64,000 bases of DNA. Source: Blepharisma japonicum. Its lineage: Eukaryota > Ciliophora > Heterotrichea > Heterotrichida > Blepharismidae. The notes under the pieces are model-generated. The model worked only from the letters and a program-made list of their open reading frames with translations. It did no database searches and was not told where the DNA came from. The translations under genes were made by a program, and so were the position numbers. Below are positions 23,002 to 58,145 of this stretch, one piece after another (the stretch's first letter is position 1; each line of letters begins with the position of its first letter). The DNA lies in assembly GCA_949751835.1 (NCBI GenBank), contig CATKHK010000041.1, forward strand, positions 310,001 through 374,000, read 5' to 3'.

Positions 23002-23418
23002 TCTTATTATAATGATATTGATATTTTTCAATTAATTGTTGCGAATTGGAATTTTAAAGAGAAGAGATTTAAACTCGTATGATTTAATGGTTGATTAAAA
23101 TTTAACTCTACATAAGAATAGAAATGGTATTTAAATAAATCAAAGATGACTCAGAATGATGCTTTATTCTTAAAACACTATTTGGAGATGGAAAGAATAG
23201 TTAAAATTTATCTCTACTTAGATTTTGTAGTATAAAATCTTAGCAATTTCTGCAAAAATTATACGCTTTTCATTTTTCTCTTCAAGCCATCAGAGCAAAT
23301 ATTTTGATTTTATCTGTTGGAATTCTTTTATTAGTTAATTACAGTGCATCCTTTTAATAGTAGAATTAGGAAGCTTAATTATAAGTCAGTAATAAAAATA
23401 TATATCTTTTATATGAAA
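23002..23418. other. gene-free spacer, 417 bp
   Basis: AT-rich, between two minus-strand genes: the PKG start and the end of the small membrane protein. I see no coding frame, RNA gene or repeat. Confidence 0.5.
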
Positions 23419-25863: not shown

Positions 25864-28800
25864 ATGGGAGAATATAAAATCTTCTTATCAAGGCACTGGC
25901 TCAAGACAATATTTTTCTTGTCATTCTATCTCTCATTTGTCAAAAGTGACACATCATGCGATCCAGACCTTTGTGCTAGCTGCGCGGGAAGCGTCTCTTT
26001 TATTTGCACAACATGTAATACTTCTCCGAGTACAACAGTTATACTTAACAGCGTTTGCTTACCTAACTGTCCTTATGGTTTTTCTACGAGTCCTTGTGCA
26101 TCTACTACAAATGCTGTAGTTGATGTGAGTTTTAACCAAAATACTTTTAGCGGTCAATACGGTCCTTTTATAACAGGTACAAGCTCATCAACTTATCAAT
26201 TTTTTTGGAGTCCAGAAAGTGTTGACCCAATACCAGCTTACCAGCAAGGATTATATTTTGATGGAACTGGCCAATATTTATCAACTGATGGCACCTTTTA
26301 TCCAAATTATGCTGTCGCTTTTTGTATGTGAATAAAGGTAATTGGCCCTGATCCAAGCAAAGATCTTTTATATTTGAATCCTGGAAGTGGAACTACAATG
26401 CTGAGGGTCAACACTCAAGGTGGGCTTAGGCTTGTGCTAGAAACAAAATCAGGCACTCAAGGATCAATAGTTAATAACTCAAAGAATTTAGTGATAATAA
26501 GCACTAGCTGATACTTTGCTTCATATACAATCACATTTTCTTCCTCAGCTGGGTCAACAACGATGACTCAATATTTGAATGGCGCCTTGGATAACACAGT
26601 AACAACTAGTGGTCAGCTTTTCAGATGGTATACCGCAGGGACTCAAACACTTATTATAGGAAAAGGGCCATATGGTAATTATAATGGATGAATCTATAGC
26701 TTTAAATTCTGGAATACAGACTACTCAGACTGGACAACAGAATATAAAGTTGTTTGTGGATCTGCAACAAACTCTTGCTTTATTAGCTGTGATTATAAGA
26801 AATATTGGAATGGCTCTACCTGCTCAAGTTGCCCAAGTCAATGCACAAAAGGATGCATTGATAATACAAAATGTGTTTGCTATGATTCTCTTTGTGGAGT
26901 ATGCACAGGATGGGGCTCAGGGTTATGCTCTACGTGTTCTTCGAATACCTCGGGAGGTGGAGCAACTCCTTGCGCTTGCACCTCAGGGTTATATAGCGCA
27001 GATGGCTTTACTTGTACAAGCTGTCCAGCAGGATGTGCTGGATGTACTGGAGGAAGTTATTATCAATGCACTTCTTGCCTTTCAAACTATTATTTCTTGA
27101 CTACAATGTGTCTCAGTTCATGCCCTACAGGCTATACTCAAGATTCAACTAATCATATTTGCACACTGTCCACAACCACTACTCTCTCTTTAGTTTTTCA
27201 GAATCAAATTGCTCTTGACACTCTCAGTGGGGTTACAGTAGGGTCGTCCAATACAAACAAATACCCAAATTGGGAAGCAACTGATCCAATTCCTTCCATT
27301 GATAGAGGCTATTACTTTACAGATTCTTATTATATGACATTGTCCTCACTACAAATATCCCCTTATTTTACAATCACAATATGGATAAATCCTTCAGGTT
27401 CTGGTCATGTTGTAACAAAGTACAGTACTGACAATTATTTTTATTTGTCTATTACTTCTTCTTATTACCCTTCTCTTAAGCTTATTCTCAACGATAATTC
27501 TTCACTTACTCTTACATGGTCTACAAGTCTTTACAACGCATGGCATAATGTAGCGTTTACAGGCACAATTGATACAAGTGGGAAGACGGTTATGAAGATG
27601 TATATCGATGGGTCATATATAAATACTGCTACCTCCTCCAGTGCATCTCCATATATAGACCAAGGAACACTTTGAATTGGGCGGCAGTCATACTCGAATG
27701 GATTTCAAGGGTTCTTATGGAGCGTTAAAATTTATAACGATAATACTCTTTATAATTCTGAATGGAAAACATCTAGCTGTGCTACTGGATGCTCAAAATG
27801 TCCGTCAGAATTACTTTGCCCCAGCACTTGTGACTTTGGAAAATTTTTATCTTCAGGATCTTGTGTGTCATGTAATGCATGCACTTATGGATGTAGAAGC
27901 ACTGATACTTGTAGACTTTGTAAATATAAAGAATGCACAGCATGCACTTTATTTGATGGGGATTGCACAGCTTGTATTACAAATGCTAGCTTATCAGGAG
28001 GAGTCTGCTCTTGTAATTCTAATACTATTTGGTCTTCTACAACCTCAGCATGCGATATATGTGATAATTTATGCACAACTTGTTCTGGAACTTATTACTT
28101 CCTTTGTAGTAGCTGCAGTGGCTCAGCAGTTCGTGTCGGGAATGTTTGTTTAAATGCTTGCCCATATGGCTTTTCGACAACTCCATCATGCACAAGTATT
28201 TCGACTACAGTTATAGATCAAACATTTGACACCGACTTTTTAGGAGCTTATGGGATTTTCACAACTGGAACTTCGGCTTCTACTTATCAATTTTGGAATA
28301 GTCCTGAAACACTGGATCCTACTCCTGCTTATAAAAGAGGCCTCTATTTTACTGGCGGACAGTATTTAGTATCAAATACAAATATTTATTTAAGCAACAG
28401 CGTATCAATGGGGTTATGGGTTTATGTGGTGACAGCTGGCGATATTCTTCAAAAGCAAACCAGACTTTCACTAAGTTCAGCAGGAGTTGTGACAGCGACT
28501 TTAGAAAATCCATCTCAATCTACAATATCAGCATCGACTGCAACTCTGTCATTTTCTGGCTGGATTTATCTCTCTTTTACAATTACTTATACAAGTGGAG
28601 CAACAACAATTACAGCATATAAAAATGGATCTGCTGGGACAACAGTTTCAAATACGGGTTATCTTTTCAGGGATTTAGCTTCTGATTTATTGTATCTTGG
28701 CAAAAGTTCAACATCTTCTACCTTCGTTGGTTTTATTTATTACTTTAGCTTATGAAATGCTGCAATCACTGATTTTTCATCAAAAATTTCTATACCTTGT

Positions 28801-31800
28801 GGAACTACTACTTCTCCTTCTTCTTGTCTCTGGGCCTGTACAATTACTCAATATTATGGCACGTCGTCATATACGTCATGCAATGGTAGTCCTAGTTGTG
28901 GAAATTTAGGGTGCAGAAGATCAGGATCATGCAATATTTGTAGCGATCCTTTATGCGCTAAATGCACTGGCTTTGGATCTAATTTATGCTACTTGTGTGT
29001 TACCCATGCTTCCGGAGGATCAACAACTCCTTGCTCATGTGATTCGAGCTATTATACTTCAGCTGATGGGTTTTCATGTCTTTTTTTATGTAAAACTGGA
29101 TGTGCTAGTTGTTCAGGATCAGGGTATTACCAATGCACGTCTTGCACAACAAGCTACTACTATTTAAACGGACTTTGCCTTACTTCATGCCCTACTGGAT
29201 ACACCCAAGATTCTACAAACCACCAATGCACTTTAACTTCCAGCAATCCTGTATCTCTTGCTTTACAAAATTTAATTATGCTTGATAGCGTCAGTGGCTT
29301 TACAGTTGGTTCCTCAAGCACTAATACTTATCCATCATGAACAGACTCAGCAGACCCTGTACCTTCAATATATCGAGGGTATTATTTTGCTACTTCATCA
29401 ACAATGTCTATGACCTCTTCCATGATCATCAGTCCTTTCTTTACTGTTACAATTTGGGTGAAGGCAACAGGCTCTGGAGTCTTATTTCTTAAGCTAGATG
29501 GGTCGAATAATATGTTCAAAATTATTTTTGAAACTTCAGGAGCACCAACAATAACGCTTAGACTTTCAGATTCTTCTATAGTTACATTAACTGGAGGGAC
29601 AGATTTGCGCAATGCTTGACACAATATTGCTTTCACCGGAGATATTGTAAGTGGGAATACAAACATTTACTTTTATACAGATGGAGTGTTAAAATCAAGC
29701 AAAGTTTCAGGGAACGCATCTCCATTTGTTGACTCAGGAACTTTATACTTGGGAATGTCAAATGGATCCTTTGGGTTCATTGGATTTTTATGAAGTCTAA
29801 AAATATTTAATGGAAATACTCATTATAATGATGAATGAATTACCAGTGGTTGTCCAAGTGGATGCTCTACTTGCCCCTCTGAAAAGCTATGTCCAGATAC
29901 TTGCGCTTGAGGAAGTTTTACAAATACTGATGGGACTTGTACAGGATGCTCTTCTACTTGCTCTCCACATGGATGCAGAAGCACTGATACTTGTATCCTT
30001 TGCAAGTACAAGGAATGCACTGCATGCACTAAATTTGATGGGGATTGTACAGCTTGTATTACCAATGCTAGCTTATCAGGTGGTGTTTGCTCTTGCAATT
30101 CTGGTAAATTTTTAGTTTCTTCAACTATAACATGTGAATCATGTGATAATTTGTGCTCAACTTGTGCTGGAACTTATTATTTTCTTTGCAGTGCTTGTAG
30201 TGGCTCTGCAGTCCTTGCAGGAAATGTTTGTTTAAATGCTTGCCCATATGGATTTTCTACAAGTCCATCTTGTACAGTTACCTCTAATTCGGTTATAGAT
30301 CAAACATTTGACGCCGACTTTTTAGGAGCTTATGGTATTTTTAAGACATCAAACTCAGACACTACTTATCAATTTTGGAATAGTCCAGACACCACAGATC
30401 CTATTCCTGCTTATAAAAGAGGTCTCTATTTTTCAAGTGGACAGTTTTTAGTTTCAAATACAAACATTTATTTAAGCAACAGTGTGTCTATGGGATTATG
30501 GATTTATGTAACAAGTGCAGGAGATATCCTTCAAAAACAAACCAGACTCTCATTTAGCTCATCTGGAGTGGTGAAGGCTACTTTGGAAAATCCATCTCAA
30601 TCTACTATATCAGCAACTTCTACAGCTTTATCAGCATTTTCAGGGTGAACTTATCTCTCCTTTACAATTGCTTATACAAGTGGAGCAACTACTATTACAG
30701 CTTATAAAAATGGTTCGGCTGGAACAACGCTCTCGAATACAGCTTATATTTTCAGAGATGCAGGCTCTGATTTATTATATCTCGGCAAGAGTTCTACTTC
30801 TTCTTTTTCTGGCTTTATTTACTACTTTAGTTTATGAAATTCTGCAATCACAAATTTTTCGTCTAAGTTTACTATCCCATGTAGCACAAGCTTAGACACT
30901 TCTTGCCTTTGGTCTTGTACTATAGCACAATACTATGCTACATCAACTTGTGCATCATGCAGCTGTGGAGGTTTAGGATGCAGAAGAGCAGGATCATGCA
31001 ATGTTTGTTATGATCCTTTATGCTCTAAATGTTCAGGTTTTGGAGCCAATTTATGCACTTTGTGTGTCAATTATGCTTCTGGGGGACTAACAACACCTTG
31101 CTCATGCGATCCTAATTATTCTCTCTCAGCTGATGGTTTTTCTTGTGTTTTTAGTTGTCCCACTGGATGTGCTGGATGTTCGGGACCATTATATTATCAA
31201 TGTACTTCTTGTCTCACAAACTATTATCTTTTAAGTGGACTTTGCCTTAGCTCATGCCCAACCGGATACACTCAAGACTCTACAAATCAACAGTGTACTT
31301 TATCTTCAACTACTGTTGTATCCCTTGCCTTAGAAGATTTAATTAAGCTTGATACCGTTAGTAGCTTTACTGTGGGATCTTCCAGTTCAAATACATATCC
31401 ATCATGAACAGATTTAGCTGATCCTGTCCCTTCTATAGGTCGCGGCTATTATTTTACCAGTGCATCATCAATGTCTTTGAGCTCTTTAAAAATCAGTCTA
31501 TTTTATACAGTCACAATGTGGGTAAAACCAACAGCTCAAGGAAACCTTTTTCTTAAGCTGAATGGATCTACTGAGATGTTTAAAATTGTGTTCACATCTT
31601 CAAAGTGGCCAACAATTACCTTAACTCTTCAAGATTCATCCTCAGTTACCTTGTCAGGGTCTACTAATTTATTCAATAGTTGGCACAATATTGCATTTAC
31701 TGGTGACATTGCAAGTGGAAAGACAAAAATATTTTTCTACACAGATGGATCATTAATATCGAGTCAGCAATCTACAAATGTGTCTCCTTTCATTGATGCT

Positions 31801-34800
31801 GGATCATTATATCTTGGATATTCTAATGGAGCAAGCAGCTTTACCGGATTTTTATGAAGCGTAAAAATATTCAATGAAAACACTCACTCCCTAGATGAAT
31901 GAAAAACTTCTGGCTGCACAGGATCTTGTTCTACTTGTCCTTCTGAGCTAAAATGTCCTGATAATTGTGATTTTGGGTCATTTTATTCGTCTGGATGTGT
32001 AGCCTGCTTTGGATCTTGCTCACCTTATGGATGTAGGAGTTCTCTGACTTGCAGATTATGTTTACAAAAAGAATGTAAAGAATGCACACTATTTGATGGG
32101 GCATGCACTAGTTGTATAGACCGAGCAACATTAACTAGTGGATCTTGTGCCTGCGATTCTAATGCAATTTGGGTTCAATCCACTCAGACCTGCGAGTATT
32201 GTGATGCTTTGTGCAGTCAATGTTCAGGATCATACTATTTTCTCTGTAGTACTTGTACAACTGGAAAAATCTTAGTAGGAAATGTTTGTTTACTTGAGTG
32301 TCCTTATGGTTTTGTAGGCATCTGTTCAAGTGTTACTTCTCAAGTTATAACTCAATCTTTTGACCAGAATTTTGCAGGATCTTATGGAATATTCACAACA
32401 GCTACGAGCTCATCGCTTTATCAGCCTTTTAACACGCCTGAAACCAACGATCCCATTCCTGCAATGAACCGAGGGCTCTATTTTTCAAGTGGAAAATATT
32501 TAGAGTCAAGCGTTTCCGTTTATTTGTCTTATAGTTTTTCTCTTGGCTTTTGGGCTTACGTAGAAAGTGCTGGAGATTTATTTGAAAAACAAAACAGACT
32601 AATTATCAATTCTAGTGGTGCTGCAACAATTTTACTAGAAAGCCCAAGCTTATCTACAACAACTGTAACTACTGGAATAATAAGTTCTTCAGGCTGATCA
32701 TATTATTCAATTACTTTATCATATTCTTCAGGCTCTACTACAGCTACAGTATATATAAACAATATTGCAGGATCTCCAAGCAGCACAAATGACTATATCT
32801 TTAGAGATGTTTCCTCTAAAACAATTCTGATTGGAGCAAGCACTTCTTCAAGCTTCTCTGGGTTTATTTACAATTTCAACTTGTGGAATAGTCCTATTAC
32901 TGGTTTTAGCACTCAGGTAAATGATGATATTTGTGGAGTAGGGAAGGGAAGTAGCTGCTTATGGGCTTGTGGTTTTGGATCCTATAAAGAAACTGGAGGA
33001 TCATGCTCTCTTTGTAATAGCTGCTCTAAAGGCTGCACAAGGGCAAAATCATGTAATGTATGCGACGAAAAACTTTGTAGCATATGCACAGGATTTGGAA
33101 CAAACCTTTGTACACATTGTGTTACTTATGCTTCAGGATCTCCGTGCTCGTGTGATGCTGGATATTCTTTGTCAACAGATGGATTTTCTTGTGTTATTTG
33201 CAGCACAGGCTGCTCTTCTTGCAATGGGTTTAACTATAATGAATGCACTGCTTGTAATAGCCCCAATTATTATATAAATGGTCTTTGTGAGCCTAGCTGC
33301 CCAACAGGATACACACAAAACTCTGCGACTCATAATTGTGACCTATCTTCATCACTTGCATTGTATTTGAATCTTATTGATCAGCTTCGTCTTGATACTG
33401 TAAGTGGATTTACTGTTGGGAGTGATAGCACAAATACTTATCCCAGTTGGGATAATTATGATCCTATTCCAACAATTCAAAGAGGATATTATTTTACTGG
33501 TTCAAGCTACATGACTTCTAGTTTAAAGTTTAGCCCTTATTTTTCTCTTTCTACTTGGGTAAAAGGCTTAAATGATGGCTATTTTTTAACAAAATATAAT
33601 ACGTCAGTGTATCTTTCGATATCTTTTACTGGTGGAATCCCAACACTTACGATAAAACTAAAGGATGGAACTACAATTTCAGTTTCAGGATCTTCAAGCA
33701 TTTTTAGTACTTGGAACTATTTATCATTTTCTGGAGAAATCTTAAGTGATGGCACTACAAAGATTATCTGCTATGCCAATGGTGTATCTGTTAACACTCA
33801 AATATCAGGATCACTAAACTGATTTAGGGATAGTGCTTCAGGAAGCTTAATTTTAGGCACAGATCAAACTTTGGCTAATGGCTTTAAAGGATATGTTTGG
33901 AACCTGTACATATATAATGATAATAGTTATGCGATAACTGATTGGGTTACCTCAGGGTGTAATGGTTGTTTGCATTGTCCAGCAGATTTAACCTGTTTAA
34001 GTGAATGCAGTTTAAACACATATCCAACCTCTTGTTCTCCATGCAAAGGAACAGGATGCACTTATGGCTGTGTAAGAGGTTCGACATGCAGACTTTGCAA
34101 AGCCAAAGAATGCTTATCTTGCAATTCTTTTACTGGAGCTTGTCTCAGCTGCATCACAAATGCAAGTCTTTCAGGAACAACTTGCCAATGTAATCCAAAT
34201 GCTGCATATTCTGATACATCAGAGAGCTGTGAGCCTTGCAATAGTGCTTGTGCTTTATGTTCTACCCCAACATGGGCTGGCTGTATTTCATGCTCAAGCA
34301 CTCGTTATCTTTTCGAAAGTTTATGTATCGGCTATTGTCCAACGGGATACTCAAAATCAGCAAATACGTGCATAATAGATTCATCAGGGGCATATGTGTA
34401 TAATTTGAGGCCAAATCAGATTAAAGATGAGGTTATTGATCTTCAATCTAGTATTGTTACAAGCACAGGAAGTGATAAAAGCTTCTATCCAAGTTATAAA
34501 GCATCAGATCCTTACGCAGCTCAATACCGTGGATACTATTTTAATGGAAAATCTTATATGAGTATAGCTTCAACTCCTAAGGCTCTAGTTCTTGCTCCTA
34601 AATTCACTATTTCGATCTGGCTTAATCCTGCTGTATCCTCTTGTGATCTATTTGGAAAGCAGTCAAATTCTATATCAGTTTCACAGATTTTTAAGCTCAG
34701 CTTATCATCCTGAAACCCTTCCTTGAAAATAAAGCTAAATAATGGCTCAACCGTCTCATACGCCAGTGCAAACAGTCTTAATCAAAATCAATGGAATTTA

Positions 34801-37248
34801 TTGATTGTTTCTTCAGATATTTCAGCAACTCCAGCTCAAATAATATCATTCAGCATAAACTCAGTTCTAGATATATCAAGTGACTTAGGCACGTCTTGAT
34901 TTGAAGATCTGCAAGACACTTATAAAATTACAATAGGTTCATCATTTTTATCAACCTCAACACTAGGCAACTACTTCTCTGGCTTTCTTTGGGATCTGAA
35001 AATCAGGAATAAAATTGTTGATTTTGCTTCTTTGTCCTCTAACTCCTGCTCTCAATGCTCTTTATGTCCTGTTGATAATTCAGGCGAATGTATACCTAAC
35101 TGTAAGATTTCTGAGTACTGGAATGGAGCACAATGCTCATCTTGTAACAATACATGCTCAGCTGTTGGCTGTGTAAAATATGACAAGTATTGTAATTTGT
35201 GTAGCAATGTTCTCTGTAGTGTTTGCAACGATTTTATCTCTAGATCATGCCTTCAGTGCAAGACAAACGCTTATTTGTCATCTGGGGAATGCATATGTAA
35301 CAACGGATATTTTTTAAATAAAACTCAAGAAGTATGCACACGATGTGATACAAATCAGTACTCAATCAATGGAGTTTGTAAAAACTGCCCAAATAAGTGC
35401 ACCTCATGTTTTGATTCATCTCTCTGCTATACATGCATTGATAAGGCTGAACTGATACATAATAGTTCGTGTATTTGCAAAGCTGGGTATAATGGAACTA
35501 ACTGCGATGTGGCTTATTTTGAAGCCAATCTGACAGTCAATGCTGATAATTCTTTAAATCTTACGTTCTCTCAAAATCTTATGAATAATATTACGCAAAA
35601 CGAGCTCTATATAAGTGTTGGAGGTGTTTCTGTATCAGACTATATCTGGACAGTGGAAAGAATAAATGATAAATTTTATAATATCTCACTGAATTTTTCT
35701 GTTGAAGTTGATAGCAAAGCTCCAATAATTGTAAAATTCATGAATTTGGCACATTTTGTATCAGAAACAAATGCACTGCCTAAGAACGATACTCTGGAAG
35801 GAAATCTCTATCATTATAATCCGTATTCAAGCAGTCAAGCAGCCGATGCAGTTACTAGCCAAACAACAGCTGCAGTTCAGTCAATTGTTGGAACTTCATT
35901 AGCAGTTTCATTTATTAATCCTAATCCAGCCTGCTTATGGAGTATGCTGAATACTCTAAATTATATTGGATACTTAGGCCTTTCCAAAATTCCAATGAGC
36001 GATTCATTATATGCTTTCGTTAAAAGTTTGAATGGCAATTATTATTTGCCAAACTTATTTGCATTAATGATTGATGAAGATCAAGGAAATGAGCCGTATG
36101 CTCAAGCAAAAAAATATGGATACGACACTGATCTGTTTTTACTCAATATTGGAAGTGCCATAACAACACTTGGAGCAATTATAGCTTCTTTTCCTATAAT
36201 TTATTTCTTATCGCGCTGTTCTCACAGATACTTAGCTAAAAAGCTACTTGGATTATTAAAAAATTATAAATGGTCAATTTTCGTGAGATTTTGGATACAA
36301 AGTTATTTAGACATTACTGCTGCTGCACTTATAGGCTTACTGAACGTAAGTTTTATTTAGTTTTCATTTGGAAATGCAGCTCAGGGTACCAATACATTAA
36401 TTTGTCTTGGAATTTTTGTAAAATTTATTTAGGCTTTCGCTTCGATTTCTCCTATATTATTCTTTATGTTTTCTTATAAAAACCTACCAAAAATCCAAGA
36501 AAAGGAAAAAGGCTTTGAAAAGCTCTGGAGTTCATTCTTTTACGAGTTCAAAAATGATCAAGGACTGATGAGCACTCAATACTATTCTTTATTTTTTGCA
36601 AGAAGACTTATCTATATCATAATTTTGACTCAGCTTAACGACTATCCAGCATCTCAAGTCATAATAAGTACAGCGCTTTCTGTTGTAAGTGTTATATATT
36701 TGATCAGATATCAGCCTTATGAAGAGTTTATTCTTCAAATTACAAATACAATCACTGAAATTTTAATCATGGCTTTTATCGGATTAATGTCTGCAAACCT
36801 TTTTGACTTGTCATCAGATATGCAAGATCAATTCGATCTAGCATTATTTTCAATTGCAATAGGAATTATGGTAGCTCAGTCCGCTTCATCAGTAGCAATT
36901 TTTGGAAAAACATGCTATGAGCTCATTAGAGAAGGAATTCGAATGAATTCACCACCGTCAGACAAAGATAATGATAAGTTAGGCAGAAAAAATTCTAGAA
37001 AAGTGGCACATCTTGATGTCAGTCCGGCCAATTCAGCTGAAATGAATAATATAACTGAGAATAATTGATTCCCTGAAGAAGAAATCCAGGAAACCTCGGA
37101 ACTGCCTAATGAAGATTATTCTAAATTAAGTAGAAGTAATTCAAGGAAAGTTGCTAATCTTGATGAAATTCCTACAAGTCCAACTGAAATGAATCGTATA
37201 ATTGAGAGTATTAAACTTCCCGAAATTACCGAAGAGGATCTCGAATAA
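25864..37248 (+). CDS. giant Cys-rich/LamG-like multi-pass surface protein 1
   Basis: One gene of 3784 residues. The frame from ATG 25864 is broken only by TGA (Trp) until two 15-nt phase-0 introns (36346-36360 and 36418-36432), then runs to TAA 37246-37248. Residues 1-28 are a signal peptide. The ectodomain alternates Cys-rich blocks (CxxC-dense, furin/TNFR-like) with nine LamG-like domains at about 84-293, 440-640, 779-976, 1123-1323, 1476-1670, 1813-2006, 2160-2346, 2494-2690 and 2843-3056. The LamG-like blocks carry recurring DPIPxxxRGYYF and NSWHNIAFTGDI motifs. A final Cys-rich block ends in an EGF signature (CKAGYNGTNC). A beta-rich stretch leads to six to seven membrane helices (about 3426-3683) and a basic cytosolic tail. 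LamG domains usually bind glycans or proteins. The membrane part vaguely resembles TRP-like proteins. Likely a surface receptor, adhesin or sensor; function unproven. Confidence 0.85.
27334..33510 (+). repeat. tandem coding repeat, three periods of about 2.07 kb in giant gene 1
   Basis: Equivalent Met codons of the A-type LamG domain lie at 27334, 29404, 31471 and 33511, giving periods of 2070, 2067 and 2040 bp. Each period holds LamG-A, Cys-rich, LamG-B, Cys-rich. All differences are multiples of three, so the frame is kept. Copies are clearly diverged compared with the middle copies of giant gene 2. Confidence 0.85.
36346..36360 (+). other. 15-nt intron in the membrane domain of giant gene 1
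   Basis: The sequence is gtaagttttatttag, phase 0, with in-frame TAG as its last codon. Removal joins LIGLLN to FSFGNA. An intron at the equivalent place occurs in giant gene 2 (57381-57395). Confidence 0.88.
36418..36432 (+). other. 15-nt intron in the membrane domain of giant gene 1
   Basis: The sequence is gtaaaatttatttag, phase 0, ending in an in-frame TAG. The exon between this and the previous intron is only 57 nt. Equivalent to the intron at 57453-57467 in giant gene 2. Confidence 0.88.
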
Positions 37249-37545
37249 AAATCTAAATATTTCTTTTTCAAAATTTTTAATGCTTCGCAATATATTTGAT
37301 GGTTTTTTTTAACAGGCTCTATAGCTGCCTCATTTTGTTTTTATAACCTCTATCGTTTTATTATTAATTTTTATTTCACAATAGCAGATCAAAAATCTTC
37401 TCTATATATTTTTATGTTTTGCAATTATGTGGCATAATACATCATAATCTCATTATTACTTATGACCATACCAACTATAGGATTTCTTTATATCATACCC
37501 ACTGTGCCTTTTAATCTTTCTAAAATTTTATTCACATTCATCAGG

Positions 37546-37674
37546 ATGAATAACACTAGAAAAGTTGCAAATATCGATAGCAGTTCAGCCATTCTAGGTT
37601 AGATAAATCATATTATGGAGAATAATGAGCTCACTGATATTAGCATATTAACAACGATTAATATTAAGCTATAG
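37546..37674 (+). pseudogene. relic of a giant-surface-protein cytosolic tail
   Basis: Reads MNNTRKVANIDSSSAILG, then TAG, then INHIMENNELTDIS. This matches the duplicated tail motif of giant gene 1 (SRKVAHLDVSPANSAEMNNITENN and SRKVANLDEIPTSPTEMNRIIE). The in-frame TAG and the lack of any membrane-domain sequence upstream show that it is not a working gene. It may be a third tail copy beyond the present stop or the end of a lost third paralog. Confidence 0.5.
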
Positions 37675-37715
37675 TTCTTTTTAAAAATATATTTAATATA
37701 ACTTTTTTCAGATTT

Positions 37716-37905
37716 TTATCGCTTTACCTTATTCTTCGCAACTTTCTTTTTATCATAGAACCCTTCAATATTTAATCTATGATATTGAAACTTATATATC
37801 TCTTCGTCCTCTCATTCACCAAACTATTTTGGCAGTTTCCAATCTCCTGTGCTGCTCCAAGGAAAACTCAAATATGACAACTTTGAGTCATTCAGCAAGA
37901 GAAGC
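37716..37905 (-). pseudogene. degraded coding relic, unknown family
   Basis: On the minus strand about 60 codons read like protein: LLNDSKLSYLSFPWSSTGDW, then KLPK, an in-frame TAG, FGEWEDEEIYKFQYHRLNIE and GFYDKKK, ending at TAA 37718-37716. Trp-rich, non-repetitive composition is unlike random AT-rich DNA. No start codon or intron explains the internal TAG. Family not recognised. Confidence 0.32.
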
Positions 37906-38633
37906 ATGCAGCTTAGCATTATTAGATTCTATAATTTATAAATCATGGCTTAGCCAATGCTAAAAAATATGTTAACTCCTTTCTCCTTGATTAAGTAACA
38001 CATTATGCTTGGGGAAACTAGAATAACAGCAAATTAGCTAAGCTCTTAAATTAACTATTGCTATAAGTAGTTTTTAGAGTTTTCTTCAATTTAATTCTGG
38101 GTTTTTAAAGAACTTTCACTTGTTTAATTCAATTTAGCTTGAGCTCTTCAGTTCTATTGTGATTAATTTGACTAGGAGGAGAAAGATTGAATTTGGATAA
38201 ACAGTTTAGTAATCTTAATGAATCTAATTGATTTTATCCATCTTATTTTTATAATCCTGAAATTTGATCATACCTTAAAATTATCTATAATTTTTCCTTA
38301 ATTCCTCATGAGAAAATATTAACAAATCCCATTTTAAAGCTAAAATTTTATAAATATAATATGAATACTCTTGAAGCTGCCTCCCTCTAGTGCTAATAAT
38401 TTGATTTTGGGTTTTAAAACTTCTACTGCTCATCATTCTTTAATTAGAAAATCAATGACTGAACTCTTTAAAAGCATTGATTCTTAAATTCAAAAGAAGA
38501 ATTCGGAATGAAACATAAAATTTAATTAGGATTTTATTCACCAAAAATCAAGCGAAAAATTACTATAAAAATAATTATTTCAAATAGAGAAATTTGCCAA
38601 TATCTAGCATGCATTTCCTTTCATAATTAATAA

Positions 38634-47600: not shown

Positions 47601-50600
47601 AATAATGGAATTTCAGGGACGACACTTTCAAATGCTGGCTATCTTTACAGAGATGCAGCGTCTGATGTATTATACCTCGGAAAGAGCTCAACATCTCCTA
47701 GCTTTATTGGATTTATTTATTACTTTAGTTTATGAAATACTGCAATTACTGATTTTTCATCTAAGTTTTCTGTACCTTGTGGTTCGAGCTTAGACACTAA
47801 TTGTCTTTGGTCTTGCCCAATTGCTCAATACTATGACACATCGTCTTGTGCATCTTGCAATAGTTGCGGGAGTTTTGGATGCAGAAGAGCAGTATCATGT
47901 AGCATATGTGATGATCCATTATGCTCTCAGTGCTCAGGCTTTGGAGTGAATTTATGTATTTTATGTGTAACTCACGCTTCTGGAGGATCGACAGTTCCTT
48001 GTACATGCGATACAAATTATATAGCTTCTGCTGATGGATTTTCTTGCATTTGAGCATGCACCTCTGGATGTGCAGGATGCTCTAGCACAGGCTATTATCA
48101 ATGTACCTCCTGCTTCACAAATTATTACTATTTAAATGGAATGTGTCTTACTTCATGTCCTACTGGATACACTCAGGATTCCACAAATAATGTATGCAAT
48201 TTATCATCAACTACTGTTATATCTCTCACTTTGCAAGATTTAATCCAGCTTGATACTGTTAGCGGCTTTACTGTTGGATCTTCAAACTCCAATATTTATC
48301 CATCGTGAACTGACTCTGCTGATCCTGTACCTTCTATTTATAGAGGTTATTATTTTACAAGTGCATCTTTAATGTATTTAAATTCATTGACAATCACTCC
48401 TTTCTATACTGTTACAATTTGGGTTAAAGCTACATCATCAGGAAATCTCTTTCTTAAGTTGAATGGATCTACTGAAATGTTCAAAATTGCTTTTACATCT
48501 TCAGGGTGGCCAGAAATTACACTTACACTGCAAGATTCATCTAATGTTTCTTTATCAGGATCAATTAGTCTATTGAATTCTTGGCACAATATTGCATTTA
48601 CAGGAGATATTGCTAGCGGATATTCAAAGATTAATTTTTATACAGATGGTTTATTAATTTCAAATCAAATCTCAACTAATATATCTCCTTTCATCGATAT
48701 AGGATTTTTATACATTGGCTATTCTAATGGATCTAGTAGCTTTACTGGATTTTTATGAAGTTTGAAAATATATAATGGAAATACCCATTATTTAGATGAA
48801 TGAATAACATCTGGATGTTCAAGCGAGTGCTCTACTTGCCCTTCTGAATTGCTTTGCCCGGACTCTTGCTCTTTTGGGTCATTTTTATCTTCTGGATCTT
48901 GCACAACATGTGATGGATCTTGCTCGCCATATGGATGTAGAAGCACTGATACTTGTAGACTTTGCAAATATAAAGAATGTACGACATGCACTTTATTTGA
49001 TGGACCTTGCACAGCTTGTATTACAAATGCTAGTTTATCAGTAGGAATCTGCTCTTGTAATATTAACGCTTTTTGGGTAGGTTCATCTGCAACATGCGAA
49101 TTATGTGATAATTTGTGCTCTACTTGTGCTGGAACTTATTACTTCCTTTGCAATGGGTGCAGTGGCTCAGCAGTTCTTGTAGGTAATGTTTGTTTAAATG
49201 ATTGCCCATATGGTTATTCAACAAGTCCATCGTGCATAAGTATTTCAACTACAGTTATAGATCAATCATTCGATACTGATTTTATGGGAACCTATGGAAT
49301 TTTTACAACTTCTACTTCAGGCTCTACTTATCAATTTTGGAATACCCCAGATTTATTGGACCCCATTCCAGCATTTAAAAGAGGGCTTTATTTCTCTAGT
49401 GGGAAGTATTTAATATCAGATACGAATATTTATTTGAGCAATAGTGTATCTATGGGATTATGGGTTTATGTTGTAACTTCAGGGGATATTCTGCAAAAGG
49501 AAACAAGACTTTCACTAAGCTCATATGGAGCTATAACAGTAATATTAGAAAGTCCTTCACAATCAACAACAACCATAACAACAGCCTCAGCAACACCATT
49601 TTTAGGTTGAACATATTTATCTCTATCAATTGAATATACAAGTGGATCAACAATAATTAAAACTTACACAAATAATTCCCCTCTAGACTCACAGTCAACT
49701 TCAGATTATATTTATAGAGATCTATCTGCAGATTATTTATATCTTGGAAAGAGTTCAACGTCATCTACATTTGAAGGTTTTATTTATTACTTTAGCTTAT
49801 GGAATGCAGCAATTACTGACTTTTCATCTAAGTTTTCAATTCCTTGCAGCTTAAGCTTAGATACTTCTTGCCTTTGATCTTGCCCAATGACTCAGTATTA
49901 TGATACGTCATCCTGCTTATCGTGTAATAGCTGCGGAGATTTAGGATGCAGAAGAGCAATTTCGTGCAGCATCTGTGAAGATCCTTTATGCTCTCAGTGT
50001 TCAGGTTTTGGAACGAATTTATGCACTTTGTGTGTTACTCACGCTTCTGGAGGTTTAACAGTTCCTTGCACTTGTAATACAAATTACATAGCTTCTACTG
50101 ATGGATTTTCTTGTATATGGGCATGCACCTCTGGATGTGCCGGATGCTCCAGCACTGGCTATTATCAATGTACTTCCTGCTTCACAAATTATTACTATTT
50201 AAATGGAATGTGTCTTACTTCATGTCCTACTGGATACACTCAGGATTCCACAAATAATTTATGCAATTTATCTTCGACTACTGCTATATCTCTTACTTTG
50301 CAAGATTTAATCCAGCTTGATACTGTTAGCGGCTTTACTGTTGGGTCTTCAAACTCCAATATTTATCCATCGTGAACCGACTCTGCTGATCCTGTACCTT
50401 CTATTTATAGAGGTTATTATTTTACAAGTTCATCTTTAATGTCTTTAAATTCACTGACAATCACTCCTTTCTATACTGTTACAATTTGGGTTAAAGCAAC
50501 ATCTTCAGGAAATCTCTTTCTTAAGTTGAACGGATCTACTGAAATGTTCAAAATTGATTTTGCAACTGCAGGATGGCCAAGAATTACTTTAAAACTACAA

Positions 50601-53600
50601 GATTCATCTATTGTTTCTTTATCAGGGTCTACTAGTTTATTCAACAGCTGGCACAATATTGCATTTACTGGAGATATTGTAAGCGGAAACACGAAAATAA
50701 GTTTCTATGAAGACGGATTGTTAATATCAAGCCAAGCTTCAACAAATGCGTTTCCTTTCATTGATGCTGGGATATTATATCTTGGATATTCAAGTCGTGC
50801 AAGCAGCTTTGTAGGCTTTTTATGAAGTGTAAAAGTTTTCAATGGAAACACTCATTTCCTAGATGAATGACAAACTACTAGTTGTGCTGGATCTTGCTCA
50901 AATTGTCCTTCTGAGTTGATATGTCCTGATGACTGTGAATTTGGCTCCTTTTATTCTTCTGGATCCTGTACAGCATGCGCTGTATCTTGCTCATCTCATG
51001 GGTGCAGAAGTTCTCTTACCTGCAGGCTCTGCCAAAACAAGGAATGCACAACTTGCACTTTATTTGACGGTCCTTGCACAGCTTGTATTGCAAATACAAA
51101 TTTATCAGGAGGTGTTTGTTCTTGCACCTTGAATGCGTTTTGGGTCCAATCTTCAGAAACTTGTGAAATTTGTGATAATCTTTGTTCAACTTGCTTAAAA
51201 ACGGATTATTTTGAATGCAGTGCTTGCACTGGCACAAAAGTTTTGGTTGATACAGTCTGCTTAAATGAGTGCCCATACAGTTTTACTTCAAGTCCATCTT
51301 GTACAAGCTCAATGTCGACTATAATTGACCAGAGCTTTGATACTGCATTCCAAGGATCTTATGGGATTTTGACAACTTCCAGTTCTTCTTTGACCTACCA
51401 ATTCTTCAGCAATCCTGATTCTACAGATCCTGTGCCTTCATATGCTAGAGGTCTCTATTTTTCTGGGTCACAATACTTGCAAGCTAATGTGAACATTTAT
51501 ATTAGCTATCAATTTTCAGTTGGACTCTGAATTTATACTATTAGTCATGGAGATATTTTCCAAAAGCAGGCAAGGATTAAATTGGCATCTAATGGAATAG
51601 CAAATATCATATTAGAAAGCCCATCCCAAACAACAACTACAGTCACTACTTCTTCATTGATTTTTAATGGCTGGTCATATTTATCTTTAACAGTTTCATA
51701 TTTGTCTGGCTCGACTACTACTGTCATTTCTGTGAATAATGTTGCTGGGACTACAATTGTGTCTACAAATTTGCTATTTAGAGATGTTTCTTCTGATATC
51801 CTGTATATAGGAAAAAGTACATCTTCTGGCTTTAACGGTTTTATTTATTATTTCAGCTTATGGAATACTGCTATCTCTGATTTTTCAGCAAAGCTTTTAG
51901 TTCCTTGTGGATCAAGTTTATCTACTTCATGCCTTTGGTCTTGCGATATAAGCCAATATTATGATGGAATTTTTTGTCAATCTTGCAATTCATGTGCCTT
52001 AGGATGCAGCCGAGGAGTTTCATGTAATATATGCTATGATCCTCTTTGCTCGATATGTAGTGGGTTTGGGTCAGGATTATGCACTCAGTGTGTCAGCCAT
52101 GCTTCAGGAGGAGGGGCTACTGCTTGCTCATGTGATGTTAATTATATTCAAGCAACTGATGGATTTTCATGCATTTGGGGATGCACTATAGGCTGTGGAG
52201 GCTGCTCGGGAACAAGTTATTACCAATGCACTTCTTGCTTAACAATGTACTATTTTATATCCGGATTATGCATTACTGTTTGCCCTACAGGATATACTCA
52301 AGATTCTGTAAATAATCAATGCACTTTGGTTTCAAACCTCTCTTTTAGCCTCCAATTCCAAGACCTAATATACTTAGACACAGTAAGTGGAGTCCAAGTT
52401 GGCTCTTCAAGCACAAATACTTATCCTACATTTGAAAGCACTGATCCAGTCCCTTCAATATATCGAGGCTACTACTTCGTCTCTAATTCTTATATGCTTT
52501 CAACTTCTCTCATATTAAATACTTACTTTACAGTCACAATATGAGTAAAGCCTATTTCCTCAGGATATTTGATGCTAAAAATTAATGGAAGTGATGAAAT
52601 TTTCAAAATTTCATTGTCAAGTAGTGGAATTCCGACACTAAAGATAAGCCTTCAAGACCTATCAACTGTGTCAGTTAGTGGCCCATCAAATCTTTTTAAT
52701 AGTTGACATAATATTGCATTCACAAGCGATATTATTAATGGAAAGATGAAAATTTATTTCTATAATGATGGTACTCTTTCAGCAAGCCAATTATCAGCTA
52801 ATGCATCTCCATTTATTGATTTAGGCACTTTAAAGCTTGGAGCATCATCTGGAAGCAATGGATTCACAGGATTTTTGTGGAGCTTAAAGGTATTTAACTC
52901 AAACTCAAATTATCTTGATGAATGACAAACAACAGGATGCTCTGGTGGGTGCTCAAGCTGCCCTTCAGAGTTAATTTGTCCTGACAACTGCAATTTTGGG
53001 TCCTTTTATTCAAGCGGTTGTACAACTTGTGATTCGAGTTGCAGTCCATATGGATGTAGGAGTTCTCTTACTTGTCGGCTGTGCCTGCAAAAAGAATGCT
53101 TGGAATGCACACGATTTGATGGAGCATGCACTAGCTGTATAGACCGAGCTACCTTAACCAGCGGAGTTTGTGCATGCAATTCCAATGCCTTTTGGGTTCA
53201 ATCTTCTCAGACCTGTGAATATTGTGATGCTTTGTGCGCTCAATGTGCAGGAGCCTACTATTTTCTATGTAATACCTGCACAACTGGTGAAATTTTAGCT
53301 GGGAATGTTTGTTTGCATGAGTGTCCTTATGGATTTGGAAGTGGCTGCTCAGTCGTTTCTACTCAAGTTATAACTCAATCTTTCGATCAGGATTTTTCAG
53401 GGTCATATGGAATATTCACAACAGCTACAAGTTCCTCCACTTTCCAATTTTTTAATACTCCTGAAGCAAATGATCCTATTCCTGCTAAGAATCGAGGGCT
53501 CTATTTTTCGAGTGGCAAATATTTAGAGTCAAGCGTTAGCATTTATTTGTCTTATGAACTGAGTTTGGGATTTTGAGCTTATGTAGAAACCGCTGGAGAT

Positions 53601-56600
53601 TTATTCGAAAAGCAGAACAGAATAATTATCAATTCTAGTGGCTCAGCTAAAATCATACTAGAAAGTCCAAGCTTAGCAGCAACAACAGTTACTACTGGGA
53701 CGATAAGCTCTTCAGGCTGGTCATACTATTCAATAACTATATCATATTCTTCAGGCTCTACCACAGCTACAGTCTATATAAACAACATTGCAGGAACTCC
53801 TAGCAGTACTAGCAACTATATTTTTAGAGATATTGCTTCTCAGACGATTCTAATTGGAAAAAGCTCTTCTTCAAATTTTTCTGGGTTTATTTATAATTTC
53901 AACTTATGAAATAGCCCAATTACTGACTTCAGTGCTCAGGTAAATGATGATATTTGTGGGATCGGACTCGGCAGCAGCTGCTTATGATCTTGTGGCATTA
54001 ATTATTATTATTTAAATACTGGAGGATCATGCTCACTTTGCAATCATTGCTCTCTTGGATGTGCAAGGGGAGTATCGTGCAGTATTTGTGAAGATAAGCT
54101 TTGCGCTGTATGCTCTGGGTTTGGGCCAGGTATTTGCACAACTTGTGTTGCTCATGCCTCAGGATCTGTGTGCACCTGTGATTTTGGCTATAATTTATCA
54201 TCAGATGGATTTGCTTGTAATATATGCAGTAACGGCTGCTCTTCCTGCAGTGGAATCAATTATTATCAATGTTTAACTTGTGTGAGCCCTTATTATTATA
54301 TCAATGGTCTCTGTGAGCCTAACTGCCCTACAGGATATACTCAAAACTCTATAACTAACAACTGTGACTTATCATCATCTCTTGCATTATATTTGGATCT
54401 TACTGATCAGCTTCGCCTTGATAAGGTAAGTGGATTTACTGTTGGGAGTGATAGCACAAATACTTATCCCAGCTGGGATCCTTATGATCCTATTCCGGCG
54501 ATTCAAAGAGGATATTACTTTACAGGAGCAAGCTATATGACTACTAGCTTTAAATTCAGCCCTTTCTTTTCTATATCATCTTGGATAAATGGCCTAAACG
54601 ATGGCTATTTTTTAACAAAATATGATAGCTGAGTGTATCTTTCTATCTCTTTTGCAGGCGGAATCCCAACGCTTACTGTAAATCTGCTCGATGGAACCAC
54701 AGTTTCAGTATCAGCATCTTCAAGTCTTTTCAATGCTTGAACCTTTTTTTCATTTTCTGGGCAAATTGCAAGTGATGGCACTAGTAAGTTTATATCTTAT
54801 GTAAACAGCATTTTAATTGATACTCAAATATCAACCTCATTAAGCTTTTTAAGAGACACTAATTCAGGAAGCTTGATTTTAGGTGCAGATCAAACCTTAG
54901 CTAATGGCTTTGAAGGATACGTTTGGAACTTGCGAATATATAGCGATAATAATTACGCTATAACTGACTGGACTATATCAGGCTGTGGGAGTGGCTGCTC
55001 ATACTGTCCTTCTAATTTAGTATGCTTAAGTGGATGCAGCTTAAATACTTATCCGAGTTCTTGCAATTCATGCAAAGCAGAATGTAATCATGGTTGTGTA
55101 TATGGATCTACATGCAGACTTTGCAAAGCAAAGGAATGCTTATCTTGTAATACTTTTACTGGAGCCTGCCTTAGCTGTATATCTAATGCAAGTCTTTCTG
55201 GAACAACTTGCAAATGCATTGCAAATTATATATATGTTGATTCATCAGAGAGCTGTGAGCCTTGTAAACATAGTGCTTGTGCGACGTGTTTCGTACCTAC
55301 ATGAGCAGGCTGCAATTCATGTTCGAGCTCCCTTTATCTTTTTGAAAGCTTATGCATCAAAAAGTGCCCCTTAGGATACTGAGCATCAGCAAATAAGTGT
55401 TCAGCCAATGGAACTGGTGGATATATTTATAATTTAAGGCCAAGTCAAATTAAGGACAAAGTTTACGATCTTCAGTCTGGCATTATCGCAAGCACTGGGA
55501 ATGACACAAACTTTTATCCAAGCTATCAAGAATCAGATCCTTATGCAGCTCAATATCGTGGATACTATTTTAATGGGAAATCCTACATGAATATAACTCC
55601 ATCTTCTAGAACTCTAGTTCTAGCTCCTAAATTTACGATGTCAATGTGACTAAACCCGTCAAAATCATATTGCGATCTATTTACTAAGCAATCAATATCT
55701 ACATCTGTCATAACTTATTGGAAACTAAGCATATATTCATGATACCCTTCATTAAGAATTAGGCTAAATGATAACTCCACAGTATTTTATACAAGCACAA
55801 GTAGGCTTATCCCAAGCGAATGAAATTTATTGACAGTTTTTTCAGATATTTCAGTCACCCCTGCCCAAATAATTTCATTCAGCATAAACACTAGCCCAGA
55901 TATATCAAGTGACTTAGGCTTTTCTTGGTTTGAAGACATTGAAGACTCATTCAAAATTACTATAGGTTCATCATTTATATCAAATACGACATTTGGCAAC
56001 TATTTCACAGGATTTCTATGGGATTTGAAAATTAGGAACAAAATTGTTGATGCTTCTTCTTTATACTTAAACTCTTGCTTCCAGTCCTCTTATTGTCCAA
56101 TTGAGAATGAAGGAGTATGCATCCCTAATTGTGCTATTTCTGAGTATTGGGATGGGATGCGATGTACTCCCTGCAATGATGCATGCTCAGGTGTCGGGTG
56201 TGTGAGATATGATAAAACTTGCAATTTGTGCAATAATGTTATATGCAATATCTGTGACGATTTTATAGCTGGATCTTGTCTTCAGTGCAAGGAACATGCT
56301 TATTTGTCATCTGGTGAATGTATATGCGATAATGGATATTATTTGAACAAAACTCAAGAAGAGTGCTTGGAATGTGAGCCAAATCAATATTCAGTCAATG
56401 GGATTTGCAAAAACTGCCCCAAAAAGTGTGGCTCTTGCCTCGATCCATCTGTTTGCTATACATGCATTGAAACAGCTGAATTATCGCAAAATACAACATG
56501 TGTTTGCAAAATCGGGTACAATGGAACTGAATGCACTCCAGCTTATTTTAAAGCTTATTTGGCAGTGAATGATGATAACTCATTGAACCTCACGTTTTCT

Positions 56601-58145
56601 GAGAATCTTATATATATTATTTCGAAGTATGATATAGCCATCTATGTGTCAAATATTTCTACATCAGATTATTCCTGGACAATGGAAAGGGTGAATAATA
56701 CATTTTACATGATTTCTTTATCTTCTTCAGTTGAAATTAGCAGCAATACTCCAATAATCTTAAAACTGCTCAATTTAACTTATTTTGTTTCAGAAACAAA
56801 CGCAGTGCCTGAAAACGATACTTTAAATGGAAATCTTTACGACTATAATCCAAATGCTAGTACTCAGACTGTTAAAGCTATAACAAGTCAAACAACTGCG
56901 GCTATTCAATCTATTATAGGAACTTCACTAGCTGTCGCATTTATTAATCCTAACCCAGCCAGCTTGTGAAGTTTGTTGAACACCTTAGATTATATTTCGT
57001 GCTTAGCCCTTACTAAAATTCCAATGTCTGACTCATTCTATGCATTTGTGAAGAATATGAATGGATATCATAATCTGCCAAATTTTTTCGATTATTTTAT
57101 GGTAGAAAGCCAGGGAACTAAACCTTATGATCAAGCAGTGAAATATGGATATAATAGCGATTTATTTTTACTTAATGTTGGAGGGATGATCACAATGCTT
57201 TTAATTATTTTTTCTACACTTCCTATTGTATATTTTTTATCAAAATGAGGATTTTCTAGAAAATATTTAGCGAGAAAGCTAGAAGGATTATTAAAGATTT
57301 ATAAATACTCAATATTTGTGAGATTTTGGATACAAACTTATTTAGATATCAGTATTACAGCTCTTGTAAGCTTATTAAACGTAAACTCTATTTAGTTCTC
57401 TTTCGGCAATATAACTCAAATTACAAACTCATTGATATGCTTATGAGTTTTTGTACGATTTATTTAGGTATTTGTTTGTATAACCCCTCCCTTAGTTTTC
57501 ATGCTGTCTTATAAAAACCAATCAAAAATTCAAAACAAAAATCTCATCTTTTCAAGTCTCTGGGGTTCATTCTTTTATGAGTTTAAGAACAATAAAGGGC
57601 TTTTAAGTACCCAATTTTATACCCTATTCTTCGGAAGAAGATTTATTTACCTTTTGAACATTACTTTTCTTAATGAAATTCCAGAATTTCAAATCGCAGT
57701 TAATGTTATCCTTTCCGTTACAGCCGTTCTCTTTTTAATTAGATACAAACCTTATAACGAGCCAATTCTTCTGGTTGCTAATACTATGAGCGAAATAGCT
57801 ACGCTGCTTATTATGGGACTGCTTTCTGCAAATCTCTTTGATTTATCATCAAGCATGCAAGGCCAATTTGAAACTACTATGATTGCAGTTGCAATTGGGG
57901 TTATGGCAATTCAGTCAGCTTCATCCGTAGCAATTTTTGGCAAAACCTGCTACCGCCTTATTAAGATTGGAATAGAAATGAATTCTCCTCCGAAAGATAA
58001 GTTTAACACCAAAGTGAATGGTAAAGAAAACAGGCGAACTACTGAACTCGACAGTATTCCATCAGAATTAAGCCGAAGTGTACTCAATAATACCCCTGCT
58101 GATATGAGTATAGACGAGGATCAAATTACAAAAATTATACTTTAA
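38634..58145 (+). CDS. giant Cys-rich/LamG-like multi-pass surface protein 2
   Basis: One gene of 6493 residues from ATG 38634 to TAA 58143-58145. In the stretches examined the frame is interrupted only by TGA (Trp) and by two 15-nt introns (57381-57395 and 57453-57467). Signal peptide at residues 1-28. The ectodomain has 17 LamG-like domains alternating with Cys-rich blocks: eight A-type, eight B-type and one terminal type. The last Cys-rich block ends in an EGF signature (CKIGYNGTEC). Then come a beta-rich stretch, about six to seven membrane helices (about 6173-6432) and a tail with RRTTELDSIPSELSRS, resembling the tail motif of giant gene 1. It is a tandem paralog of giant gene 1, with matching first and last modules and an expanded middle. 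Signal peptide and membrane end place it at the cell surface; ligand and function unknown. Confidence 0.85.
40107..54536 (+). repeat. tandem coding repeat, seven periods of about 2067 bp in giant gene 2
   Basis: Equivalent Met codons of the A-type LamG domain lie at 40107, 42171, 44238, 46305, 48372, 50439, 52494 and 54537. The periods are 2064, 2067, 2067, 2067, 2067, 2055 and 2043 bp. Each unit has two LamG-like domains and two Cys-rich blocks. Units starting at 44238, 46305 and 48372 are nearly identical over long stretches, whereas the outer units are diverged. All length changes are multiples of three. Confidence 0.9.
57381..57395 (+). other. 15-nt intron in the membrane domain of giant gene 2
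   Basis: The sequence is gtaaactctatttag, phase 0, ending in an in-frame TAG. Removal joins LVSLLN to FSFGNI, exactly as in giant gene 1. Confidence 0.88.
57453..57467 (+). other. 15-nt intron in the membrane domain of giant gene 2
   Basis: The sequence is gtacgatttatttag, phase 0, ending in an in-frame TAG. The exon between the two introns is 57 nt, the same as in giant gene 1. Confidence 0.86.

What the first reader, a model, noticed from the sequence alone, without database searches (positions are those of the whole stretch)
25864..58145. Two tandem giant LamG/Cys-rich membrane genes with a 689-codon repeat of fixed length
The window shows 3784- and 6493-residue proteins built from a repeat of two LamG-like domains and two Cys-rich blocks. 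In giant gene 2 the period is exactly 2067 bp over four consecutive intervals, and giant gene 1 also has a 2067-bp interval. Strict length conservation over about 14 kb of coding repeat suggests frequent homogenisation or strong structural constraint. A 19.5-kb gene with only two 15-nt introns is striking. I do not know of a described protein with this exact layout.
Basis: partly seen in the sequence, partly recalled or inferred. Interest (0 to 1): 0.75.

Follow-up and report, generated by a model that had tools for sequence, protein, structure and literature searches.

The report
Paired giant lectin-repeat ciliate receptor genes
A ciliate carries, side by side, two enormous genes for cell-surface proteins built from 9 and 17 copies of a lectin-like module; they look like an outsized version of known ciliate contact-sensing membrane proteins, lengthened by repeated internal copying.

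Summary
Gene 1 (25864-37248, 3784 aa) and gene 2 (38634-58145, 6493 aa) are open under TGA=Trp, each with two predicted 15-nt introns. They hold 9 and 17 units of about 345 aa, each a LamG domain plus a Cys-rich block. Units alternate A/B; the A-B dimer is 689 codons. In gene 2 the A-to-A spacing is exactly 2067 bp over five intervals. Both proteins end in five strongly hydrophobic segments and a tail. End units of the two genes pair as orthologues; central units were most likely multiplied after gene duplication, with tract-wise homogenisation. The fixed length fits graded, partly recent dimer copying; special constraint is only mildly supported. The plan resembles ciliate 'Cys block + five helices' proteins: Tetrahymena CRMP1/2 (exocytosis) and MTA/MTB (mating). 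The LamG chain is extra; the capped paper listings I saw describe none. Best mechanism, inferred only: a CRMP-like surface contact sensor. Homology of the membrane domain to CRMP or MTA/MTB could not be tested. Novelty: new variant of a known kind.

The parts
25864..37248 (+). giant gene 1, 3784 aa (408 kDa), 9 LamG-Cys units
   Evidence: open frame under TGA=Trp and predicted splicing
38634..58145 (+). giant gene 2, 6493 aa (699 kDa), 17 LamG-Cys units
36346..36360 (+). predicted 15-nt intron 1 of gene 1
   Evidence: GT...TAG, removal restores frame; same place in gene 2
36418..36432 (+). predicted 15-nt intron 2 of gene 1
57381..57395 (+). predicted 15-nt intron 1 of gene 2
57453..57467 (+). 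predicted 15-nt intron 2 of gene 2
26098..35415 (+). gene 1 units 1A-9Z (LamG + Cys block each)
   Evidence: Laminin_G_3 E 4e-66
38868..56444 (+). gene 2 units 1A-17Z
   Evidence: Laminin_G_3
40965..51299 (+). gene 2 array of five dimers (units 3-12), each exactly 2067 bp, no indels
40548..40964 (+). Cys block of unit 2B, left end of the amplified stretch (94-96% identical to 4B from dimer codon 570; 83% in the bin before)
35416..36345 (+). gene 1 juxtamembrane region (weak EGF-like match) and first hydrophobic segment(s)
   Evidence: EGF_Teneurin E 0.0027, below cut-off; hydropathy
56445..57380 (+). gene 2 juxtamembrane region (weak EGF-like match) and first hydrophobic segment(s)
   Evidence: EGF_Teneurin E 0.011, below cut-off; hydropathy
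36433..37248 (+). gene 1 last exon: hydrophobic segments and tail
57468..58145 (+). gene 2 last exon: hydrophobic segments and tail

Best explanation
Two head-to-tail paralogous genes of a Blepharisma-type ciliate encode giant surface receptors: a secretion signal, a long outer chain of LamG lectin-like domains alternating with growth-factor-receptor-type Cys blocks, a short juxtamembrane region, a multi-helix membrane domain and a cytoplasmic tail. An ancestor that already had the end units of both genes duplicated; the A-B dimer in the middle was then multiplied, most in gene 2 (8 more units, i.e. four dimers), by unequal exchange with patchy conversion. Function (inferred): a contact or ligand sensor that works like ciliate CRMP proteins. 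The LamG chain binds glycans or proteins of another cell, and the membrane domain passes the signal inward, for example to trigger discharge of cortical granules. Shown: open frames, LamG, unit relationships, tracts. Weakly shown: Cys-block type, five strong hydrophobic segments as helices. Inferred: splicing, signal peptide, topology, binding, signalling, process.
For: Open frames with Ka/Ks 0.16-0.29 among gene 2 units 3-12 (A with A, B with B) and variable sites by codon position 172/126/352. LamG by Pfam and by fold: Foldseek's first four hits of the dimer model are neurexin and laminin structures, E 2.6e-10 to 9.2e-10. Cys block: 20 Cys columns invariant in 26 of 26 units in one alignment, 18 in another; profile hits R-spondin E 0.0024 and LET-23 Cys-rich region E 0.0068. 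Five C-terminal segments with mean hydropathy of at least 1.6 in each gene. Tree: 1A-1A, 2B-2B, 7A-15A, 8B-16B and 9Z-17Z pair across genes, all starred; central A units group by gene (gene 1 pair 94/91, gene 2 group 82/92, drawn open). Tetrahymena CRMP1/2 have an EGF-receptor-type domain plus five predicted C-terminal helices and are needed for mucocyst release (PMC9670195); its authors say apicomplexan CRMPs add lectin and Kringle domains to the outer part.
Against: The membrane region matched no Pfam family above cut-off and no PDB sequence; the only Pfam rows were S_4TM (E 0.0053, below cut-off) and BaxI_1 for gene 1, MASE2 and DUF1774 for gene 2. Its AF2 model is unusable (mean pLDDT 35). 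No GAIN or GPS row from Pfam, although HHpred sees GAIN in Tetrahymena CRMPs. Cys-block matches are weak and no Pfam furin-like/GFR row appeared. Foldseek alignments of the dimer have low global TM-scores (0.15-0.23 of the query in the rows shown), as expected for two loosely placed domains but not a full-length match. One paper calls CRMPs apicomplexan-specific (PMC9815656), against PMC9670195, so even the ciliate membership of CRMP is worded differently in print. No expression or location data.
Confidence: 0.5

Rival explanations
1. Mating receptors: the pair works like Tetrahymena MTA/MTB, recognising partner cells or gamone glycoprotein during conjugation.
For: MTA/MTB have a Cys-rich growth-factor-receptor/furin-like domain and five helices in the terminal exon, a large outer part, and form a gene pair (PMC3608545, PMC10901506, passages). 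Our genes also have five strong hydrophobic segments, Cys blocks before them, and occur as a pair.
Against: Here the pair is head to tail and its end units are 68-77% identical, not head to head; MTA and MTB match each other only in a short Cys-rich segment. Nothing shows mating expression.
Confidence: 0.2
2. Structural or adhesive surface coat (glue, food capture or cyst/cortex matrix) with no signalling role.
For: Extreme repeat length, Ser+Thr about 26% and 32 and 55 N-glycosylation motifs; LamG and Cys modules are common in adhesion proteins (recalled).
Against: A conserved multi-helix C-terminal region with tail (59% identical between genes) is more than an anchor needs.
Confidence: 0.2
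3. Variable surface antigens like Paramecium SAgs, with central repeats that diversify under selection.
For: Orthologous ends and repeated centre; Cys-rich; ciliate surface proteins with internal tandem repeats are known, and a group of Cys-repeat proteins with transmembrane domains is mentioned in Paramecium (PMC9788069, passages).
Against: Classical SAgs are GPI-anchored, with Cys periodicity throughout and high central dN/dS; here there is a multi-helix end, Cys is confined to alternate blocks (1-2 against 22-26 per unit) and Ka/Ks is 0.16-0.29.
Confidence: 0.05
4. The repeat number is an assembly artefact.
For: No reads could be examined here.
Against: The five dimers of the array differ from one another (longest identical run 145 bp; single 90-bp bins reach 100%), frames stay open and more differences lie at third positions than at either other position, so the copies are real and separable by accurate long reads.
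Confidence: 0.03

Closest known systems
Tetrahymena CRMP1/CRMP2 and apicomplexan cysteine repeat modular proteins (PMC9670195, PMC9815656)
   Same: Outer part with Cys-rich growth-factor-receptor-type domain, multiple C-terminal helices (five predicted in Tetrahymena, nine in Toxoplasma/Plasmodium); apicomplexan members add lectin and Kringle modules
   Different: No LamG chain in the passages seen; no GAIN found here by Pfam; homology of the membrane domain untested
Tetrahymena mating-type proteins MTA/MTB and MRC1 (PMC3608545, PMC10901506)
   Same: GFR/furin-like Cys domain with five helices, large outer part, gene pair (MTA/MTB)
   Different: 161-194 kDa (MTA, MTB) against 408-699 kDa; MTA/MTB head to head and mating-type-specific; no LamG in the passages seen
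Neurexins/laminins (LamG domains in extracellular rods)
   Same: LamG/LNS domains, in neurexin alternating with EGF modules (fold hits; layout partly recalled)
   Different: About 7-11% identity in those hits; no multi-helix membrane domain and fewer LamG domains (recalled)
Paramecium surface antigens (PMC9788069)
   Same: Big Cys-rich ciliate surface proteins, some with central tandem repeats
   Different: Classically GPI-anchored, Cys throughout, high central dN/dS

Membership tests
LamG / Laminin_G_3 domain family | Match to the Pfam model above its cut-off | tested here: met
   222, 234 and 171 bits against 27.6 for three long pieces; of two unit-length stretches, one 46.8 bits and one 23.9, below cut-off
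LamG / Laminin_G_3 domain family | Concanavalin-like beta-sandwich fold | tested here: met
   AF2 dimer model, LamG cores mostly pLDDT 70-91, whole mean 65.7; Foldseek neurexin/laminin hits first, low global TM-scores
Growth-factor-receptor / furin-like Cys domain | Similarity to GFR/FU domains | tested here: inconclusive
   R-spondin E 0.0024, LET-23 E 0.0068; no Pfam furin-like row for two single blocks, no PDB hit for one single block
CRMP | Multiple C-terminal membrane helices (five in Tetrahymena) | tested here: met
   five C-terminal segments of at least 1.6 in each gene; hydropathy only, weaker further ones possible
CRMP | Sequence homology of the membrane core to known CRMPs | not testable with these tools
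   no CRMP sequences at hand; no Pfam/PDB match
CRMP | GAIN domain (Tetrahymena CRMPs by HHpred) | tested here: inconclusive
   no GAIN/GPS row from Pfam; HHpred not available
CRMP | Co-expression with Nd exocytosis genes | not testable with these tools
   no expression data
MTA/MTB mating-type proteins | Head-to-head gene pair | tested here: not met
   both genes on the + strand in tandem
MTA/MTB mating-type proteins | Cys domain plus five helices in the terminal part | tested here: inconclusive
   five segments; Cys domain type weak
Paramecium surface antigens | GPI anchor and Cys periodicity throughout | tested here: not met
   multi-helix end; Cys in alternate blocks only; GPI signal itself not computed
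Blepharisma nuclear genome | UGA=Trp and 15/16-nt introns | tested here: met
   paper passage. Species not shown

The most novel reading that the evidence does not exclude
A heterotrich class of giant contact sensors in which a CRMP/MTA-type signalling membrane domain carries a lectin chain whose length is tuned by copying one 689-codon LamG dimer, so that chain length (9 vs 17 lectins) sets reach or avidity for prey, predator or partner recognition.
Probability: 0.25. Interest if true: 0.7.

Novelty: new variant of a known kind. Interest (0 to 1): 0.45.

Why it matters
If the membrane domain proves to be of the CRMP/MTA kind, it gives a heterotrich counterpart of the sensors proposed to trigger rhoptry discharge and of mating recognition, with an explicit lectin chain that makes the ligand question testable. 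The pair also offers a natural series of a repeat growing inside one long coding exon, with copies of graded age.

Tried and rejected
Relatives elsewhere: viral contigs with one dimer-length protein (2 pattern matches, 0 confirmed) and with the two-row C-terminal alignment (73 matches, 0 confirmed); genome contigs with 12 dimers (234 matches, 0 confirmed). The second genome-contig scan, phages, plasmids and the genome search (beyond) were not used. No eukaryote genome collection was available, so other heterotrichs could not be searched; absence there says nothing. Within the window a six-frame search with unit and C-terminal profiles hit only these two genes.

PF24163 'Head completion protein' lies inside the LamG region below its cut-off and was rejected as a chance match. 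S_4TM rejected likewise. A distant kinship of the membrane domain to fungal TRP-like/Flc proteins came to mind from memory only; Pfam listed no such match, so it is not claimed. Foldseek and profile searches also list bacterial neurotoxin binding regions, phage LamG proteins and others: these share only the common LamG/ConA sandwich and mean nothing for function. The membrane-domain model was not searched because its confidence is too low.

Paper searches for a described protein of this layout: (open-licence PMC library only). Listings were capped (for example 15 of 88, 12 of 48, 12 of 134, 8 of 28), with starts of abstracts; none of the listed ones describes it. Papers were seen as: passages for PMC9942806, PMC11285972, PMC3608545, PMC10901506, PMC9815656, PMC9960496, PMC9774955, PMC6356496, PMC9788069; abstract, passages, section 6 part 1 and section 13 part 1 for PMC9670195.

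The indel test uses Ks values and an approximate tree typed in and is rough. The permutation test can be inflated by uneven constraint; on third positions 8 of 10 dimer pairs have P below 0.05 and 4 of 10 pass a tenfold correction; two pairs (D3-D4 0.44, D3-D5 0.11) show nothing.
Full report
What is there. The long frames of the window are open only with TGA as an amino acid. That amino acid is most likely tryptophan: in 19 unit-alignment columns holding 62 TGA codons, other rows hold TGG 62 times and TGT or TGC never, the rest being Tyr 27, Phe 23, Ser 17 and fewer of others. Together with 15-nt introns this matches the Blepharisma nuclear genome, for which predominantly 15- and 16-bp introns and UGA=Trp are reported (PMC9942806, passage). 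The species is not shown.

Two tandem genes on the + strand, 1385 bp apart, encode 3784 and 6493 aa. Each has two predicted 15-nt introns at equivalent places near its 3' end; no RNA was available. Both proteins start with a hydrophobic, signal-like segment (by eye; only gene 2's reaches the 1.6 hydropathy threshold) and both end in five strongly hydrophobic segments and a tail. At the same threshold gene 1 also shows one stretch inside a Cys block (residues 2136-2154), which I take as not a membrane helix.

Units. A motif common to the LamG domains occurs 9 times in gene 1 and 17 times in gene 2. Units alternate A and B, with a distinct last unit Z. In one alignment 20 Cys columns are invariant in 26 of 26 units, in another of the Cys blocks alone 18; the LamG half holds 1-2 Cys, the block 22-26. 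Pfam finds Laminin_G_3 with high scores in the long pieces, in 9 stretches of gene 1 and 7 and 6 of the two gene 2 pieces; of two unit-length stretches scanned, one is below the cut-off. A 12-row AF2 model of one dimer (mean pLDDT 65.7, pTM 0.42) has two strand-rich domains and Cys-rich connectors. Foldseek's first four hits are neurexin and laminin structures (E 2.6e-10 to 9.2e-10), with low global TM-scores, I think because the two domains are not placed alike. The Cys block is weakly similar to R-spondin (E 0.0024) and to the Cys-rich region of the EGF receptor LET-23 (E 0.0068); Pfam gives no furin-like row for two single blocks.

The fixed period. In gene 2, units 3-12 are five dimers of exactly 2067 bp without any indel. 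Ks between them runs from 0.09 (3A-5A) and 0.13-0.15 (8B-10B, 6B-8B) to 0.72-1.01 for comparisons with 11A or 12B; the five cross-gene end pairs have Ks 0.75-1.18 with 0-3 gaps each. So the dimers are of graded age. A crude comparison of gap rates expects about 4.3 gaps in the array and sees none (P 0.014 by Poisson, 0.032 conditional): mild support for length constraint or homogenisation, no more.

Homogenisation is nevertheless visible as tracts. D5 and D6 are 94-98% identical over dimer codons 300-419 but 62-84% over codons 0-239 and 64-82% from codon 450 on. Unit 2B is 94-96% identical to 4B from dimer codon 570 on but 53-67% in the bins 360-539. Longest concordant runs exceed shuffled site order in 10 of 10 pairs for all sites (P below 0.05) and in 8 of 10 for third positions, 4 of 10 after correction.

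History. In a maximum-likelihood tree of the 26 units, the first, second and last three units of gene 1 pair with those of gene 2 (all starred), gene 1's 6B pairs with gene 2's 14B (98/98), and central A units group by gene: the gene 1 pair 3A-5A at 94/91, the gene 2 group of five only at 82/92 and drawn open. Gene 1's 4B and gene 2's 12B are unresolved. The simplest reading is gene duplication, then separate re-copying of the middle; gene 2 has eight more units, that is four dimers. Some long branches meet in this tree, so the deepest forks are not relied on.

Constraint. Ka/Ks among gene 2 units 3-12 is 0.16-0.29 and for the five end pairs 0.16-0.24; variable sites by codon position in the five dimers are 172, 126 and 352. 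Both are under purifying selection, and the centre is about as constrained as the ends. This speaks against diversifying antigens of the Paramecium kind (PMC9788069, passages).

What it works like. In ciliates, proteins with a Cys-rich growth-factor-receptor domain and five C-terminal helices include Tetrahymena CRMP1/2, needed for mucocyst release (PMC9670195), and MTA, MTB and MRC1 of the mating-recognition complex (PMC10901506; PMC3608545). Apicomplexan CRMPs carry larger outer parts with lectin and Kringle domains, and the authors propose them as contact sensors for rhoptry discharge. Another paper words CRMPs as apicomplexan-specific (PMC9815656). Our proteins fit that plan, with a LamG chain as the outer part. 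Heterotrich extrusomes discharge in reaction to external stimuli such as predator-prey encounters (PMC9774955, passage), which makes granule discharge a natural process to test. This functional step is inference from layout.

Limits. The membrane region matched no Pfam family above cut-off and nothing in the PDB and did not fold with two sequences (mean pLDDT 35). No eukaryotic genome collection was at hand, and no relatives were confirmed in viral contigs or prokaryotic genomes. Membership in CRMP or MTA/MTB families is therefore open.

Verdict. A real and well-preserved pair of giant receptor-like genes; unusual in outer layout, familiar in plan. Interest 0.45.

Noticed in passing
36965-37063, 37112-37210, 37556-37626: The tail of gene 1 holds a 99-bp tandem duplication (74%), and a third decayed copy (73%, blastn E 1e-5) with an in-frame stop lies in the intergenic DNA beyond the stop codon.
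   Followed up: partly
59133-59995 and right edge to 64000: 868 aligned bp at the 3' side of the ANF_receptor gene (59426-62896, minus) are 89% identical to the right edge of the window, so a tandem paralogue probably runs off the window.
   Followed up: partly
59426-62896 (-): Receptor with ANF_receptor ligand-binding region (E 1e-23) and a hydrophobic C-terminal part (by eye) next to the giant pair. A ciliate survey reported no family C GPCRs (PMC9960496, passage); what this one is was not tested.
   Followed up: no
7259-19411 (-): Another very large gene, open frame of 4051 aa: HECT ubiquitin ligase domain with two SPRY stretches and a CUB match.
   Followed up: no
20248-23031 (-): Kinase with four cyclic-nucleotide-binding stretches, PKG-like by layout.
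   Followed up: no
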